Of a DNA stretch of 64,000 nucleotides, positions 24,917-57,202 are shown in pieces (within the stretch, counting starts at the first letter, position 1; each line of letters opens with the position of its first letter). The notes beneath the pieces were generated by a model. It was given only the letters and a program-made list of their open reading frames with translations, was not told the origin of the DNA and made no database searches. Where the stretch lies: positions 1-64,000 of the IMG/VR virus record IMGVR_UViG_3300017989_006421; one strand, 5' to 3'. The DNA is from a virus. A program made the position numbers and the translations under genes.

Positions 24917-25462
24917 TTATTCAAAAAGGAAGACGGCCGCAGCCACAACTGTGGTCCATTTACCATTCTTATCGCCCTCGGTGGATTGCACAACGGCGCG
25001 TGTTTTGACAATCTGACCACTCATCTTGTAGACTTCGCGGCGTTCATCATAGTCACTGTCGGCGTTGAACTCTATGCCAAGCGTAGTTGCCAACATACTA
25101 GCAGCCATGTCCTCAACGAAATCAGCCGTCTTGAGTTTGGTGAGTCCATACCCGTGATGCTCGGAAATGTAACCATACTGATCCCCCTTGGCGGGTACAG
25201 CAAGTCCTATGCCGGCAGAAACCAATCGATTGGGCTCGTTGGTACGAGTTTCAGCCAAAACACAATAGGTTATTTGACCGGGAACGAGCTTCGCCAACCC
25301 AGCTCGGCGTGAGATGATCTTACATCCAGGTGGATAGATGCTCGATACTTTCACCAAATTGCACAATGCAACCCCCGCATCGCGCAACGCAGCCTCAAAA
25401 GATTCCAGGGGGTGGTGGTGCTTACCCACCCCACGAGTGAAGAAGAGTTGATTCGGAACCAT
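24917..25462 (-). CDS. Pyruvoyl-dependent arginine decarboxylase
   Basis: A 181-residue protein, close to the 165-195 residues usual for the family. It has PNQLFFTRGVG at the start, ESFEAALRDAG, and the self-cleavage site KVSSIYPPG with Ser40-Ser41, where cleavage would make the pyruvoyl group on the beta subunit. GYISEHHGYG is the later conserved substrate region. It converts arginine to agmatine, the first step of a polyamine route. AGGAG lies eight bases before the ATG. No agmatine-using enzyme is seen in the window. Confidence 0.85.
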   Translation of the reverse strand: MVPNQLFFTRGVGKHHHPLESFEAALRDAGVALCNLVKVSSIYPPGCKIISRRAGLAKLVPGQITYCVLAETRTNEPNRLVSAGIGLAVPAKGDQYGYISEHHGYGLTKLKTADFVEDMAASMLATTLGIEFNADSDYDERREVYKMSGQIVKTRAVVQSTEGDKNGKWTTVVAAAVFLFE

Positions 25463-25473
25463 TTCCACGTCTC

Positions 25474-25992
25474 CTAATCTGATGAGACAGGGGCGAATAT
25501 CTCCTGCAACACGCCCGCCAACTCTGTCCTGGGACGATGAGTAGTACATTCCGCGTTGTGGGTTGCCCTTCGCTTGCCTGCCTCACGTGATGCCTCCCAC
25601 GCTTCCTTGATCTGCCGCAATTTCTCTGTCTCTGCGGTTACACCCTTGGTGGGTGGGGTCGAGTGATGGATCGCGTCATAAAAAGTCCGAGGGATTTGTA
25701 TCATCTCTCTGCTACACAACGGACAGTTAGTTTCCTCGCTGGCCTCGCCCCGATTCTTACAGGAGTCAGCTACACAAACCATTACAACCTCAGCCATTAC
25801 TCTCCAGTCCTTAGCTGGATTAGCAATCGTTAAAATCTTCATTGCCAGGTCTCGCATTCCGTCTTGGTACCCCCGACCATACGCGGTCTCGGATTCCGCC
25901 AGGTCGCCTGGTGCAGGTTGGACGAGTCCGCGTCGGCTGTTGGCAATTAACACATCGACTGCTTTCCCCGGAATCACTCTCGCGGCAGTCAC
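25474..25992 (-). CDS. Hypothetical protein with GYxxGxxD motif and zinc pair
   Basis: A 172-residue protein. AYGRGYQDGMRDLAMKIL near residue 37 recurs in variant form in the proteins at 35123 and 41026. It also has CVADSC and CPLCSRE, a likely zinc site. GTG start with AGGAGAAG upstream. Function unknown; coupled to the arginine decarboxylase only by position. Confidence 0.55.
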   Translation of the reverse strand: MTAARVIPGKAVDVLIANSRRGLVQPAPGDLAESETAYGRGYQDGMRDLAMKILTIANPAKDWRVMAEVVMVCVADSCKNRGEASEETNCPLCSREMIQIPRTFYDAIHHSTPPTKGVTAETEKLRQIKEAWEASREAGKRRATHNAECTTHRPRTELAGVLQEIFAPVSSD

Positions 25993-27230: not shown

Positions 27231-27533
27231 TCAATTGGTAAAAACAGCCACAACATCCTGAACCTGAACCACCATCAGTCTGTCATCGGCCTCGAATCCA
27301 ACAGGCACCGCGTTCTGCGGATTAAAAAGAACCCTGTCATACTGCTTGATTGGGTAGTCGGGGTCACTGTCTACCTTGGCTGATATTTCTACTACCCGAC
27401 CAGTTAGGGTGGGAATTTCCAAAGAACCAGGTAACTCAATTCCGCCTTTGGTGGTGGTTCTGTTCTCGTCTTTCCGGATGAGTACCCGTTCTCCAAGAGG
27501 AATCAAGGTCTCCATTTTCTTTTTCGTTTTCAA
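27231..27533 (-). CDS. GroES-like co-chaperonin
   Basis: A 100-residue protein. IPLGERVLIRKDENRTTTKG with the mobile loop region GIELPG, then TGRVVEISAKVD, YDRVLFNP and the final VQVQDVVAVF, follow the GroES fold. Phage co-chaperonins such as T4 gp31 replace host GroES so that GroEL can fold large capsid proteins. It starts with TTG after GGAGG. No phage GroEL is seen here, so it would use the host chaperonin. Confidence 0.8.
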   Translation of the reverse strand: MKTKKKMETLIPLGERVLIRKDENRTTTKGGIELPGSLEIPTLTGRVVEISAKVDSDPDYPIKQYDRVLFNPQNAVPVGFEADDRLMVVQVQDVVAVFTN

Positions 27534-28429: not shown

Positions 28430-28936
28430 CTACATTTTGGAACGTGATTTTAAGACAGTCAGTGATGGATGATCTTTTGCGAATTGCCGACAGAAAACGC
28501 GATCTTTCACAACCCAATGTTTGGCATATTCTATTGCTTCTTTTCGACGCCAACCCGGCCCCAGCCACGTATTCGCGTGAAGAGTGTTTGGGAAGTAAAT
28601 ATCAAGAGTCCACCCCGTTACTCCCTGTCCATTCCAGTCTTTCCTCACGATACCGAAACGTTTATTCTGAGGAAAAGGACTAGATAGACAAGTTTCATCC
28701 AGCCGGGAGTCCACAACAACAGGTTTTTCTCCTATCCACACGATATCTCGGAGTAAACGAGCTACACTTACACAATCCCCTATTTGATCGTTTAGATGGC
28801 CCAGTAGCCTTTGATTCCTATCCATATCCTTACGAATCTGATCCGCTTGGGCTTCTAGCATTTTCAAAGACGTTTGCACTTGATCCGGGGTCAATCGTCT
28901 CAAATTAGCAGTTGTTAATTTTAAACTGATCTTCAT
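28430..28936 (-). CDS. Hypothetical protein with N-terminal coiled coil
   Basis: A 168-residue protein. Residues about 15-55 form a coiled coil (VQTSLKMLEAQADQIRKDMD). The C-terminal half has aromatic-rich beta segments with TLDIYFPNTLHANTW. The ATG at 28936 has GGAG six bases upstream; an ATG at 28978 has none. Function unknown. Confidence 0.6.
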   Translation of the reverse strand: MKISLKLTTANLRRLTPDQVQTSLKMLEAQADQIRKDMDRNQRLLGHLNDQIGDCVSVARLLRDIVWIGEKPVVVDSRLDETCLSSPFPQNKRFGIVRKDWNGQGVTGWTLDIYFPNTLHANTWLGPGWRRKEAIEYAKHWVVKDRVFCRQFAKDHPSLTVLKSRSKM

Positions 28937-28995
28937 GCGAATCTCCGGTACCTCTCTTATTGGCCGAGTCACTTCCATTACCGAAGGGGGGGGGT

Positions 28996-29042
28996 GGGAT
29001 AGAGCAGGGCGAGGTAGGTACGTGGATGCCCTACTCTATCCC
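28996..29042. repeat. Long hairpin 1 of three
   Basis: An inverted repeat: GGGATAGAG, one mismatch, AGGGC, then a 17-base loop and the matching arms GCCCT and CTCTATCCC. It lies in the 228-base gap between the genes ending at 28936 and 29165. A run of nine G (28986-28994) sits beside it. It is the first of three tandem structures. Confidence 0.8.
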
Positions 29043-29057
29043 GAGGCGAAAAAGAGT

Positions 29058-29093
29058 GGGGAGCAGGGGCTTGTGATGCCAACCCTGCTCCCC
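29058..29093 (-). terminator. Long hairpin 2 of three, terminator-like
   Basis: A perfect 11-bp stem GGGGAGCAGGG with a 14-base loop. Read on the minus strand it is followed by ACTCTTTTT, so it can act as a Rho-independent terminator for the leftward gene at 29165. Read on the plus strand it has no T tract. Confidence 0.65.
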
Positions 29094-29109
29094 AAGTAAA
29101 TGATTCGTC

Positions 29110-29160
29110 CGACGAGGGGGCAGACGTGTCCGGGGAAACACTGCCCGCCCACGCTCGTCG
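29110..29160. repeat. Long hairpin 3 of three
   Basis: Nested inverted repeat: CGACGAG pairs with CTCGTCG, then GGGCAG with CTGCCC, then GTGT with ACAC. The total span is 51 bases. It ends four bases before the stop codon of the gene at 29165. Confidence 0.75.
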
Positions 29161-29164
29161 AATG

Positions 29165-30160
29165 TCAGTTAAGAACATGCTCACCAATAAAGTCATTGGG
29201 GTGATCTACCAAAGTGTCAGCGGCTTCCATCGGATCGCGGCCCCAAAGTTGTATCATGCTTTTAGCCAATTTCTGCTGAACCACTTTCAGTGTGTCTTGC
29301 TTTTTACACACCTCATCTAACTCTGCGTAGATGTCTCCCCTTATGTGGGCCTGAGTATAGAGCACAGCCCCCGGCATGGTTATTCCTTGCACGACATCAA
29401 GATAAACCTGGAGTTCCAGCATCTTGACATAGTTGTCTTTGGCGACCCTACCCTTGAGCTGCCCATAGACAAACGGCAAATCCAACCACCTGTGGAATTC
29501 TTTCATCCATTCCCATTTGTCTTGGAGACGACCACCATGGAACGCTACGAAATCCCACAATCCCCCACCCCGCATACTAGTGAGCCAATTTTGCTCGGCA
29601 CATTTGATATCAACATCAGCGAGAGGAAGGGTGGAGTGGCCACGATTGTTTTGAAGAAGCAGAGAACCATCATGCACATGGAGCCCACATGGAACCCATC
29701 CTGCCCTGCGTCTTCGTCTTTGATTAGACAAAGAATGCCGGGTAAGAATTTCATGATGACTGTTCAAAGCAGGGTACCCAGGTAAGAACACCTGACCACT
29801 GGGTAATACCAGTGATCTCGGTTTTCGTCCACCGGGACCATACAGTTTCTTTCTGGTTTCCCAGGCTTTACGAGCAGCTTCGGACCGACTGGTCTTCTTT
29901 TGCTCATCTCCCAACGCAAGTCCCACCGCCCCGTCACTAGGGAGGTTTTTATCTGGAGCGACAGGGACTGGGTTGCCCGTTTCACCATCTCCTTCAACAT
30001 CGTCGAAGTTACCATCCAAATCCGGTGTTTGGACGGGAATCTCACTTACGAACGCGTGTCCATAAGGGCCACACACATTGCACCTCCTGGTTTTAGGGAA
30101 CAGCGAATAGCTCAGAAAGTTATCGATTTGTCCATAATGTCGATAACAAGGACTGGACAT
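29165..30160 (-). CDS. Hypothetical protein
   Basis: A 331-residue protein. CNVCG near residue 27 may be half of a zinc site. A low-complexity acidic linker follows, then SRSEAARKAWETRKKLYG, a basic helix common in DNA-associated phage proteins, then a globular Trp-rich C-terminal half. A consensus promoter lies 75 bases upstream. Function unknown. Confidence 0.6.
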   Translation of the reverse strand: MSSPCYRHYGQIDNFLSYSLFPKTRRCNVCGPYGHAFVSEIPVQTPDLDGNFDDVEGDGETGNPVPVAPDKNLPSDGAVGLALGDEQKKTSRSEAARKAWETRKKLYGPGGRKPRSLVLPSGQVFLPGYPALNSHHEILTRHSLSNQRRRRRAGWVPCGLHVHDGSLLLQNNRGHSTLPLADVDIKCAEQNWLTSMRGGGLWDFVAFHGGRLQDKWEWMKEFHRWLDLPFVYGQLKGRVAKDNYVKMLELQVYLDVVQGITMPGAVLYTQAHIRGDIYAELDEVCKKQDTLKVVQQKLAKSMIQLWGRDPMEAADTLVDHPNDFIGEHVLN

Positions 30161-30234: not shown

Positions 30235-30264
30235 ATTATACCATAAGAGGGGGGTATCTGTCAA
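30235..30264 (-). promoter_or_regulatory. sigma70-like promoter
   Basis: On the minus strand TTGACA (30259-30264) is followed after 18 bases by TATAAT (30235-30240). Both boxes are perfect. It points at the gene at 30160 and resembles the pair at 47602-47694. Confidence 0.8.
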
Positions 30265-31843: not shown

Positions 31844-31916
31844 TAGGACCGGCAGGATTTGAACCTGCGACCCCCGCCTTAAGAGGGCGGTGCTCTGCAC
31901 ACTGAGCTACGGTCCT
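31844..31916 (-). tRNA. tRNA-Lys(CUU)
   Basis: A complete 73-base tRNA on the minus strand. The acceptor AGGACCG pairs with CGGTCCT and the discriminator is A. The D arm is GCTC/GAGC, the anticodon arm CCGCC-CTCTTAA-GGCGG with anticodon CUU, and the T arm GCAGG-TTCAAAT-CCTGC. CCA is not encoded. It lies 13 bases behind the split tRNA-Lys(UUU). Confidence 0.92.
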
Positions 31917-32918: not shown

Positions 32919-33995
32919 TTAAGCTCCCCTATGACTTTTCTTACCCTCGAGATATTGGTTACTCACAATTTTGAGCTTTACCCGACCACACATATTATCG
33001 CGTCTCTCTTTAATTGGTTGAACCACCACGCCTTCTCTAAGGTGGTTTGCCCCTGGGATAAGGCTGTCCCCCTCCGCCAGCTCAAGAACTTCCTCATTAC
33101 AGAGACCCCGATAAACCACAGGTGCCCAATTCAATCCCGGCACCTCTGAAACAAGGGTGAAGGCTTCATCAAATTCTAACCAATTCCCATCCAGATCAAG
33201 TATATCAAAAACTGCTACAAAGAACTGATTACGATTTGCTCCATATTTGAGACTCTGAACCTGCCCGTACACCTCAGCATAAAGGACCAGTCCAGGATGA
33301 GCGCGACACCAGGTTTCGATAGCCGGATTTTGTTGGAGGGTTTGCCACCAGGGACTCTTTTCGTCCTTTTTCTTCCAATTGGTTCGACTACCACAGAACA
33401 TCCTTAGTGTTTCACTTTCGTTGGGGAAGGCAGCGTCACAAGGACCTATCGGAGTACCATCTGGCCAAGTCTTATCTGACTTGGGGAGAGTACAAACAAA
33501 CCGAGCGTTACAACCATGAATCTTCTCGGTTACTACTATCTCTTCACCCTCAACAAAGATACCGCTGCCATAGCGGCGGTAATTCTCGACATCATACTTG
33601 GGGTAGTAACCATGTGGGCCAGTTTCATTATCTGTGTTGAAACTCGTCGGAAGAGGCGGCTCGTAGCGGGTGATACCCATCAGTTCCATGACATCATCAC
33701 CCTCTTTGGTGCCCTCCGGTGCAAACCATACTAAACCCTGCGACAAAATCCCGCGAAATCGACGTACCCGAATCCGACGCCATCGGTCACTACTGGAGTC
33801 CTTTAGGAACTGAAATGCCTCAATATCAGGTACCATATAGTCAGGTGGAATATAGACGGCTAAATCGCCTTCCTTAAAATCATTCAGCCGTATACAACAG
33901 GACCAACCCCAAATATCGACCAACCCCAGGGTATCCGCGTTAGGGTGTTTTTTCACCTTAGGAATGGTTATGACTTCAATCGCATGAGAACTCAT
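32919..33995 (-). CDS. RNA ligase, Rnl5/DraRnl-like
   Basis: A 358-residue ligase. The N-terminal 110 residues form an OB-like domain, as in the Deinococcus RNA ligase. Motif I is TEKIHG with the adenylated Lys158, motif IV is REGVVVQP near residue 330 and motif V is VKLKIVS. It seals 3'-OH and 5'-phosphate RNA ends using ATP. It starts with GAGGGTAAG before the ATG, which overlaps the stop of the HAD gene. The two lysine tRNAs lie directly downstream, which suggests tRNA repair, by inference. Confidence 0.82.
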   Translation of the reverse strand: MSSHAIEVITIPKVKKHPNADTLGLVDIWGWSCCIRLNDFKEGDLAVYIPPDYMVPDIEAFQFLKDSSSDRWRRIRVRRFRGILSQGLVWFAPEGTKEGDDVMELMGITRYEPPLPTSFNTDNETGPHGYYPKYDVENYRRYGSGIFVEGEEIVVTEKIHGCNARFVCTLPKSDKTWPDGTPIGPCDAAFPNESETLRMFCGSRTNWKKKDEKSPWWQTLQQNPAIETWCRAHPGLVLYAEVYGQVQSLKYGANRNQFFVAVFDILDLDGNWLEFDEAFTLVSEVPGLNWAPVVYRGLCNEEVLELAEGDSLIPGANHLREGVVVQPIKERRDNMCGRVKLKIVSNQYLEGKKSHRGA

Positions 33996-54873: not shown

Positions 54874-54974
54874 CCGGTGATTTGCTATGTGTCATAATGT
54901 GTGTTGCGCATCTTCGCGGCGTCTTTGCTTTGTCATACCCCCAAAACAGATGACAGTAAGGAAGGGACCGATTG

Positions 54975-55307
54975 ATGAGAAGGATCATTACTAATGGTCT
55001 GCCTGTCCTAATTGGATTTCTAGTTGGGTTTGGAATCATCGAAAGCTTACGTGAGACATCCGCACAGATGACCAGTGAGCCAATAGAAGATGGTGTGCCT
55101 GCTGTTGTATCTGGCGAACCTGGTGTGTTATCTGTAACCAGTGTGTCAGTTTGTTGTTTTCTATTGCCGTGGTTAGAGGGTCATACTGACCCCGATGACT
55201 GTCTTGGTTATGATGTGGTGACTGGCAGATTTCACAATGTAGTAGAGGGGGTGGAGTTATTGAACATCCAAATGACGATATGTAGCTCACCTGCCATGTG
55301 TTGGTAG
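54975..55307 (+). CDS. Small membrane-anchored protein
   Basis: A 110-residue protein. Residues 9-27 form one membrane helix (LPVLIGFLVGFGIIESL) after a basic start. The rest would lie outside or in the periplasm with three Cys. AAGGGA precedes the start. It ends just before a strong terminator. Function unknown. Confidence 0.55.
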   Translation: MRRIITNGLPVLIGFLVGFGIIESLRETSAQMTSEPIEDGVPAVVSGEPGVLSVTSVSVCCFLLPWLEGHTDPDDCLGYDVVTGRFHNVVEGVELLNIQMTICSSPAMCW

Positions 55308-55313
55308 AGTTCC

Positions 55314-55345
55314 GACGCCGTCTGTTAGGCGGCGTCAGTTTTATT
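55314..55345 (+). terminator. Rho-independent terminator
   Basis: Stem GACGCCG/CGGCGTC with a nine-base loop, then AGTTTTATT. It follows the stop codon by six bases and should end the transcript of the membrane-anchored protein. Confidence 0.85.
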
Positions 55346-55383
55346 CGTAATGGTAAAATTGGGTTCGATTCCCAATGCGAATG
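55343..55383 (+). pseudogene. tRNA minihelix remnant
   Basis: ATTCGTA pairs over seven bases with TGCGAAT (one T-G). Between them are ATGGTAAAA and a perfect T arm TTGGG-TTCGATT-CCCAA. This is the acceptor and T arm of a tRNA without D, anticodon and variable regions; ATGGTAAA resembles a D-loop scrap. It is 41 bases long. Confidence 0.6.
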
Positions 55384-55513
55384 TGGTTTTAGACAATTCA
55401 TTGATTGATCCAGTCCCAGGTCGATATCATCTGGGTTGCCCACTTGTTGTGGGGAATGAGATCGCGAGTTTATTAATCAATGGAATACATCGCGACAAGA
55501 CGTAGGTTTAGGT

Positions 55514-56587
55514 TTGACCCTGGTATATAGCAGAGCACGTGTTAGTCAACTGATTAACGACGAACCTATTGCCATGACGACTGTGTCAGGGGTGGTACTC
55601 ACGCCTGACACGACTACCGTCAAATCTATCCCACTATTGCTGATAGATTATGACTATCGCAGTACACTGACTCCGGAGCCGAGCAGTACACAGGGCAGGT
55701 TGGAAGATATACCAACTACATGTGCCTACCGAGCTTCTCATCCCCTTTTTGGTCTGATGCCGCGACATCACCAGAAGGAATCAGGATATCTCAAGCCAGA
55801 AGAGATAGCCCAAAGCGTAGCTGGCAAATTACGTGGTTATTGCGGTGCGCACCACGTGTCTACAACTAGGCGTTGGAGCCCGTCCCCGGAAGTCAATTCC
55901 GTAGTGGTGGCCAATGTCAAAGTCCTTGCCTCGTCGATCCATATTTCGCGTTACCCTTCCGAGAGCAGTGGAGACCGGGCAGGAAATGATTCTGTGGCTA
56001 AGTTTAACTCGTGTAGCAGTCGTGGTCAGGTAAGTGGAACGATGTTTCCGAAAGTAAAGACCGGTAAAAAAGTTAATCCGAGTCGAACAAGTAGCCACCC
56101 AAAAGGGCGATCATTCAGGCATTCAACAACCCCTATGCAGTATAAAAGGAGGCACCGTTCAGGAGCGACACACTCCGACCGGCGGAATCCATTGCGTAGA
56201 GTATGTAATGCGTTTTCGGTTCGGCTATGCCTGTCCGAACCAGGTAACGAATCATTTCTACTAATTGAATATTACAGGGATAGTAGGTTGGTTTCATTGA
56301 TCGAATTCCCCGCTGCTGCCATTAACTGCGGTGGTGGGTGGGTTGGATCACCATTAGGAAGCTCTCTTGAAGTTAATTTGAAGTTACCGTCCGATGTGGA
56401 GCGTGTGCACGTTGACGCCCCTTGGACGCTTAACGGATCTTGTCTTGGGAGTTACCACAAGTCCTTCTTTTTATTGCGATGGACTGGTGGATCGATTTTT
56501 GTCCTCCCTGGGACTGAAGCGTGTCTCAGGAACAAAGTAGTAATGCAGATTTGGTTACCTGCATTACAAATTGCTTCTAATTCTTAA
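55514..56587 (+). CDS. Orphan protein, about 357 residues
   Basis: A long frame with no family I recognise. The first 230 residues are Ser/Arg-rich and unlike the neighbours; the last 110 look like a folded beta-rich domain (LIEYYRDSRLVSLIEFPAA, TGGSIFVLPGTE). The TTG start is poor; an ATG about 21 residues on is an option. It sits in an orphan region. It could be recently acquired or only partly coding. Confidence 0.45.
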   Translation: MTLVYSRARVSQLINDEPIAMTTVSGVVLTPDTTTVKSIPLLLIDYDYRSTLTPEPSSTQGRLEDIPTTCAYRASHPLFGLMPRHHQKESGYLKPEEIAQSVAGKLRGYCGAHHVSTTRRWSPSPEVNSVVVANVKVLASSIHISRYPSESSGDRAGNDSVAKFNSCSSRGQVSGTMFPKVKTGKKVNPSRTSSHPKGRSFRHSTTPMQYKRRHRSGATHSDRRNPLRRVCNAFSVRLCLSEPGNESFLLIEYYRDSRLVSLIEFPAAAINCGGGWVGSPLGSSLEVNLKLPSDVERVHVDAPWTLNGSCLGSYHKSFFLLRWTGGSIFVLPGTEACLRNKVVMQIWLPALQIASNS

Positions 56588-57202
56588 ATTTAATCAAGGG
56601 ACGGACCCAAGCATCCATAGAGTGATGCCCCGTTCCCCCCGCCCCCCAATTCGGCGATGCGCAATAATCGGCAATAAACCCTTATATGCGTAATACTGAT
56701 TAATTTTAATCATTAATGGACAAATTTTTACCTTTTGGTTGAACCCCTTCTAGGGGTTGTATGTCCATCTCCTGATGTACGTTGTAAGAGTTGATACGTC
56801 CTGATTCTCAGGTCTCACAACTCTTACTGTCTTGACTATTTCATAGCCAATACCAAACTCCCGCCGGGAGGAGATGGAGCTATTGGCCCCTCCGTCAACC
56901 GGTGTGCGAGGTGTGATCTTGATAGTCGTCAACACGAGGTGGATGGGTTTAGTTTTGGGCAGTCTGTTTTTCAACCTAAAAGGGCTCGTCTCTGCCAGGA
57001 TGTCTTTGGCAGTGGAACCCTAGTGGGGGAGGTCGGGGTAGTACAAGTCTGTTTCGGGGATCAACTTGAAGTACAACCCCCGGCGCAAACGCTTTGGTTA
57101 CTCTTTGGTCAGGAGAGATAGAAGTTGCAATGAATGAACTTAGAAGTATTGGTTCGTTATAAATCATACCACATAAACAATAACCTTTAATAGAGTGTTC
57201 CT
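56588..57202. other. 615-base region without a sure gene
   Basis: It holds an AT-rich palindrome TGATTAATTTTAATCA (56696-56711), an AACCCC/GGGGTT hairpin at 56742-56759, and TTCGTTATAAA near 57149, also found at 47783 before another rightward TTG gene. Frames of 60-85 codons exist on both strands, none with a good start. It likely carries the promoter region for the RNR gene. Confidence 0.5.

What the first reader, a model, noticed from the sequence alone, without database searches (positions are those of the whole stretch)
28996..29160. Three long hairpins in tandem in one gap
Within 165 bases there are three separate, near-perfect inverted repeats of 36 to 51 bases with different sequences and about 15-base spacers. 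One terminator would be enough. The set may be a stable non-coding RNA, an RNA-processing site, or a structure for DNA packaging or replication.
Basis: seen in the sequence. Interest (0 to 1): 0.6.

Follow-up and report, generated by a model that had tools for sequence, protein, structure and literature searches.

The report
Triple RNA hairpin after phage gene
Directly after a strongly promoted gene of a large virus of bacteria, the message folds into three very stable hairpins in a row, most likely a heavy-duty stop or brake for RNA polymerase and a cap for the message end; this is unusual in size but probably an ordinary kind of device.

Summary
The three hairpins are real. In transcript (window minus-strand) order they are H3 (29162-29108, 24 bp including 5 G-U), H2 (29094-29057, 12+3 bp) and H1 (29042-28996, 15 bp). 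They are separated by 13 and 14 nt and begin 2 nt after a stop codon. The gap folds far beyond chance on the transcript strand (z -8.4; 0 of 200 shuffles) and much less on the other (z -2.9). Wobble pairs also point to RNA: across the 262-kb phage genome, strong gap stem-loops carry 17 sense G-U mismatches against 3 A-C, while coding hairpins show no bias (61 against 51). The upstream gene (no known family) has its own perfect sigma-70-type promoter. H2 is followed by CUCUUUUU; H1 and H3 have no U-run. Single stem-loops just after stop codons are a habit of this genome. A triple of this strength is unique among five jumbo-phage genomes searched. Neither flanking gene, nor the array, has a relative in any collection searched, so covariation cannot be tested. 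Best reading: a tandem-hairpin transcription terminator/attenuator that also protects the upstream mRNA's 3' end. A 3'-UTR-derived small RNA remains possible. DNA packaging or replication use is disfavoured. Interest is modest.

The parts
30235..30264 (-). Perfect 12/12 sigma-70-type promoter TTGACA-18-TATAAT with TG before the -10; presumed promoter of gene A
   Evidence: one of five 12/12 matches in the 262-kb genome; 38-nt near-identical copy (97%) at G001 156778-156815
29165..30076 (-). Gene A, 303 aa from a GTG with AGGAGG 6 nt upstream (331 aa if from the ATG at 30160); no known family; TGA stop at 29167-29165
29108..29162 (-). H3, first hairpin in transcript order: 24 bp including 5 G-U pairs, 4-nt loop, starts 2 nt after the stop codon
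29095..29107 (-). 13-nt spacer CGAATCATTTACT
29057..29094 (-). H2, second hairpin: 12 bp plus 3 inner bp, GC-rich, -27.0 kcal/mol
29043..29056 (-). 14-nt spacer CTCTTTTTCGCCTC: U-run after H2, terminator-like tail
28996..29042 (-). H1, third hairpin: 15 bp with one G-U, 17-nt loop, -28.0 kcal/mol, followed by ACCCCCCCCC
28430..28936 (-). Gene B, 168 aa (ATG preceded by GGAG), downstream of the array; no known family; no promoter of its own seen in the 59-nt leader

Best explanation
The three hairpins are one RNA element in the message of gene A. RNA polymerase starts at the perfect promoter at 30264-30235, reads gene A, and straight after its stop codon makes H3, H2 and H1 in turn. H2 with its CUCUUUUU tail acts as the main intrinsic terminator. 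H3 and H1 add pausing or destabilisation and block 3'-to-5' exonucleases, so gene A gets a stable, sharply ended message and genes B onwards get only read-through, i.e. the array is a strong attenuator between A and the downstream genes. Shown: anatomy, predicted fold, strand bias, promoter-like and U-run sequences. Inferred: termination, its efficiency and the protection of the message.
For: Folding is specific to the transcript strand, with G-U pairs on that strand (H3 5, H1 1). Genome-wide, strong stem-loops in co-directional gaps have 17 G-U against 3 A-C on the sense strand (p 0.003; 0.006 after correcting for base composition), with no bias in coding hairpins, 61 against 51. 12 of 20 such stem-loops lie within 30 nt of a stop codon, and 5 of 20, H2 among them, have at least 6 T in the next 9 nt. 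Gene A has a perfect sigma-70-type promoter. No promoter-like site lies between the array and gene B. Spacers of 13 and 14 nt and a start 2 nt after the stop fit the hairpin-cluster terminators of PMC8355165.
Against: H1 and H3 lack U-runs; H1 is followed by C9. The H1 loop (17 nt) exceeds the 13-nt limit used for canonical terminators (PMC12207403). H2's U-run is set back from its GC stem (ACUCUUUUU). Genes B onwards have no other evident sigma-70-type promoter until about 24.1 kb, so complete termination would silence them unless they use phage-specific promoters. No transcript data exist, and no relatives allow a covariation test.
Confidence: 0.6

Rival explanations
1. Intercistronic processing and stabilising element: RNase III or another nuclease cuts in the long stems, and the hairpins protect the gene A message, with little true termination. 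A and B stay co-transcribed but end up at different levels.
For: H3 is 24 bp, long enough to be a double-stranded substrate; most strong stem-loops of this genome sit in short gaps without U-runs between co-directional genes; gene B has no promoter of its own.
Against: H2 does have a U-run; H3's helix is broken by small bulges; no host is known, so its nucleases are unknown.
Confidence: 0.22
2. A small non-coding RNA made from the 3' end of the gene A message (or from its own promoter), about 170-190 nt with three stem-loops, acting in trans or as a protein-binding scaffold.
For: Exceptional stability and compact three-hairpin layout; small RNAs from mRNA 3' ends are common in bacteria (PMC9438474).
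Against: No Rfam match at gathering score, and relaxed hits are no better than chance; no promoter-like site just upstream; no second copy or relative.
Confidence: 0.13
3. DNA-level structure: cruciform, packaging site, replication origin or recombination site.
For: Inverted repeats can extrude as DNA; the gap is non-coding.
Against: H3 is a good hairpin only with G-U pairs on the transcript strand; z -8.4 against -2.9; single copy, far from the terminase gene.
Confidence: 0.03
4. Assembly artefact or chance.
For: None found.
Against: The gap is identical in two contigs; 0 of 200 and 0 of 3000 shuffles reach it.
Confidence: 0.02

Closest known systems
Hairpin-cluster intrinsic terminators, including tandem U-shaped hairpins (Gupta and Pal 2021, PMC8355165)
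   Same: Several hairpins less than 15 nt apart, starting within 80 nt of the stop codon, U-run not required.
   Different: The cluster paper's introduction defines short hairpins of 2-10 bp; these have 15, 15 and 24 bp. It studied bacteria, not phages. Termination is not shown here.
Canonical intrinsic (L-shaped) terminator
   Same: H2 has a GC-rich stem, a short loop once its inner 3 bp form, and a U-run.
   Different: H1 and H3 have no U-run, and H1 has a 17-nt loop.
Single intercistronic stem-loops of the same phage genome
   Same: G-rich 5' arm, 10-24 bp, mostly directly after stop codons, sense G-U bias.
   Different: Those are single; here there are three in a row.
Small RNAs derived from mRNA 3' ends (PMC9438474)
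   Same: Structured RNA at the end of an mRNA.
   Different: No transcript, processing site or target is known here; no Rfam match.

Membership tests
Hairpin-cluster intrinsic terminator (PMC8355165) | Neighbouring hairpins less than 15 nt apart | tested here: met
   Spacers of 13 and 14 nt
Hairpin-cluster intrinsic terminator (PMC8355165) | Unit lies within 80 nt downstream of the stop codon | tested here: met
   H3 starts 2 nt and H2 starts 70 nt after the stop; H1 starts at 122 nt
Hairpin-cluster intrinsic terminator (PMC8355165) | Short hairpins, stems of 2-10 bp (the paper's introduction; its methods accept any size) | tested here: inconclusive
   Stems here are 15, 15 and 24 bp; the paper is not consistent on this point
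Hairpin-cluster intrinsic terminator (PMC8355165) | Drop of RNA-seq coverage at the unit | not testable with these tools
   No transcript data for this uncultured phage
Canonical intrinsic terminator | GC-rich stem, loop 3-13 nt, U-run behind it: H2 | tested here: met
   12+3 bp, loop 6 nt in the sense fold, tail CUCUUUUU; criteria from PMC12207403
Canonical intrinsic terminator | Same features: H1 and H3 | tested here: not met
   H1 loop 17 nt and tail ACCCCCCCCC; H3 tail CGAAUCAUUU without an unbroken U-run
Any Rfam RNA family | Covariance-model score at gathering threshold | tested here: not met
   Only a tRNA in the whole window; nothing better than E 0.59 in the region with relaxed search
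3'-UTR-derived small RNA | Discrete RNA with a defined 5' end and a target | not testable with these tools
   Needs small-RNA sequencing
Conserved structured RNA | Compensatory changes in relatives | not testable with these tools
   No relatives of either flanking gene or of the array

The most novel reading that the evidence does not exclude
The array is a dedicated structured non-coding RNA of a new family, made at high level from the gene A promoter during infection and released by processing, with its own role beyond ending the gene A message.
Probability: 0.12. Interest if true: 0.6.

Novelty: new member of a known kind. Interest (0 to 1): 0.27.

Why it matters
It shows how a jumbo phage that uses host-like promoters may insulate one strongly expressed gene from the next inside a long same-strand gene series. 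The whole genome shows a reproducible habit: G-rich stem-loops right after stop codons, selected as RNA. That habit is testable by 3'-end sequencing and could say whether phage stem-loops without U-runs terminate transcription or only shape messages. The locus itself is probably a very strong version of a known device.

Tried and rejected
Relatives were sought by protein (gene A in viral contigs, phages, bacterial genomes and 30 contigs with related terminases; gene B in viral contigs, phages and the same 30 contigs), by hairpin sequence patterns, and by distant blastn. Only the same phage was found, so no covariance model was built. The H2 stem sequence also occurs in five other viral contigs, mostly between genes; I take this as convergence of G-rich stem-loops, not kinship, but did not test it further. 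H1, H2 and H3 were compared for common descent: scores 18, 17 and 16 are no better than between unrelated stem-loops of the genome, so a tandem duplication is not supported. Structure prediction of genes A and B from single sequences was poor (mean pLDDT 34 and 56) and was not searched further. Local minimum-energy scanning was too slow and filtered the array out, so it was replaced by a stem-scoring scan. A first gene-calling script missed many genes and was replaced. The window's own genome was not available as a file, so the near-identical 262-kb contig was used instead.

Full report
SETTING. The window is part of a 93.6-kb virus record. It matches, at 99.997% over all 64 kb, the 262,650-base contig IMGVR_UViG_3300029267_004162, called G001 here; window 1-64000 corresponds to G001 253626-189625. 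A distant terminase match to jumbo myoviruses such as Erwinia phage Y3 (about 28% identity), with portal, ribonucleotide reductase and helicase genes, marks it as a jumbo tailed phage with no close cultured relative. I called genes in G001 with a script (311 genes, 89% coding).

THE OBSERVATION. The gap lies between two minus-strand genes. Gene A ends with TGA at 29167-29165; gene B starts at ATG 28936 behind GGAG. Read as the transcript, the order is H3 (29162-29108), a 13-nt spacer, H2 (29094-29057), a 14-nt spacer, H1 (29042-28996), a C9 run, then the gene B leader. H1 and H2 are found as DNA inverted repeats. H3 is a clean hairpin only as minus-strand RNA: 24 bp with 5 G-U pairs at -34.1 kcal/mol, against -23.2 on the other strand.

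CHANCE. The 186-nt gap folds at -93.4 kcal/mol on the minus strand, z -8.39, 0 of 200 shuffles as good. The plus strand gives z -2.90. None of 3000 first-order shuffles with the gap's composition has three stems of score 33 or more. With a threshold of 32, this is the only set of three stems within 200 nt in five jumbo-phage genomes (about 1.4 Mb, both strands), apart from its own mirror on the other strand.

RNA OR DNA. I scanned all gaps with a strand-symmetric score that treats G-T and A-C mismatches alike. In the 20 strongest stem-loops of co-directional gaps the mismatches are G-U on the sense strand 17 times and A-C 3 times (p 0.0026; 0.0059 against the composition of the gaps). The same scan inside genes gives 61 and 51 (p 0.40). 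So this genome's gap stem-loops appear to be kept as RNA on the transcribed strand. The array's own share of that count is small (H1 one G-U; H3 is not among the 20), so its strand-specific fold is separate support.

CONTEXT. Gene A has a perfect TTGACA-18-TATAAT promoter with an upstream TG (30264-30235), one of only five perfect matches in G001. A 38-nt near-identical copy stands before another gene at G001 156778. No promoter-like site lies in the array or in the 59-nt leader of gene B, and the next one in this direction is at about 24.1 kb. Strong stem-loops elsewhere in the genome sit within 30 nt of a stop codon in 12 of 20 cases. Five of 20, H2 among them, have at least 6 T in the 9 nt behind the stem. 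H2 therefore looks like an intrinsic terminator. H3 and H1 do not on their own.

MECHANISM. I propose that the array ends or strongly attenuates transcription from the gene A promoter, mainly at the U-run behind H2, and shields the gene A message. Clusters of hairpins less than 15 nt apart, without a required U-run, have been proposed as terminators in bacteria from RNA-seq of 13 genomes. The same paper cites two tandem hairpins behind gyrA in M. smegmatis that terminate better than either alone (PMC8355165). The present spacers (13 and 14 nt) and position (2 nt after the stop) fit; the stems are longer than the 2-10 bp in that paper's introduction. Termination itself is inferred.

LIMITS. Genes A and B match no Pfam or PHROG family and have no relatives in the viral and phage collections searched; gene A has none in bacterial genomes either. 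Nor has the array. The shuffles and the wobble test speak for RNA structure, not for a particular function.

VERDICT. A real and unusually strong RNA hairpin array, most likely a tandem terminator/attenuator and 3'-end protector, with nuclease processing or a processed small RNA as the main open alternatives.

Noticed in passing
G001 153841-153894 and 156670-156727 (outside the window; locus L012): Two very long inverted repeats (21-24 bp) with nearly the same sequence, each about 40 nt upstream of a nearly identical 11/12 promoter on the minus strand: a duplicated hairpin-plus-promoter cassette, one copy downstream of a tRNA-like 3' end.
   Followed up: partly
30264-30235 (-): Perfect sigma-70-type promoter; five such in 262 kb, sharing TTGACA...TATAATGG, probably the phage's strong host-polymerase promoters.
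   Followed up: partly
54876-57202: A 2.3-kb stretch with no confidently called gene, holding an ARAGORN-only tRNA-Asn call (55295-55384 +) and several stem-loops; Rfam finds nothing convincing.
   Followed up: partly
28986-28994: A run of nine C (nine G on the + strand) right behind H1, in the leader of gene B; same length in both contigs.
   Followed up: no
31844-31916 (-) and 32919-33995 (-): A tRNA-Lys gene about 1 kb from an RNA ligase gene (PF09414 with PHA02142 OB-fold domain), which may point to tRNA repair.
   Followed up: no
27231-27533 (-) and 24917-25549 (-): Phage-borne GroES-like co-chaperonin and pyruvoyl-dependent arginine decarboxylase downstream of the array.
   Followed up: no
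L005:8398-10884: The large terminase and some relatives differ by a long insert between the N-terminal and ATPase parts, possibly an intein.
   Followed up: no
about 45522: The window's record lacks 2 bases present in the 262-kb contig, the only difference over 64 kb.
   Followed up: no
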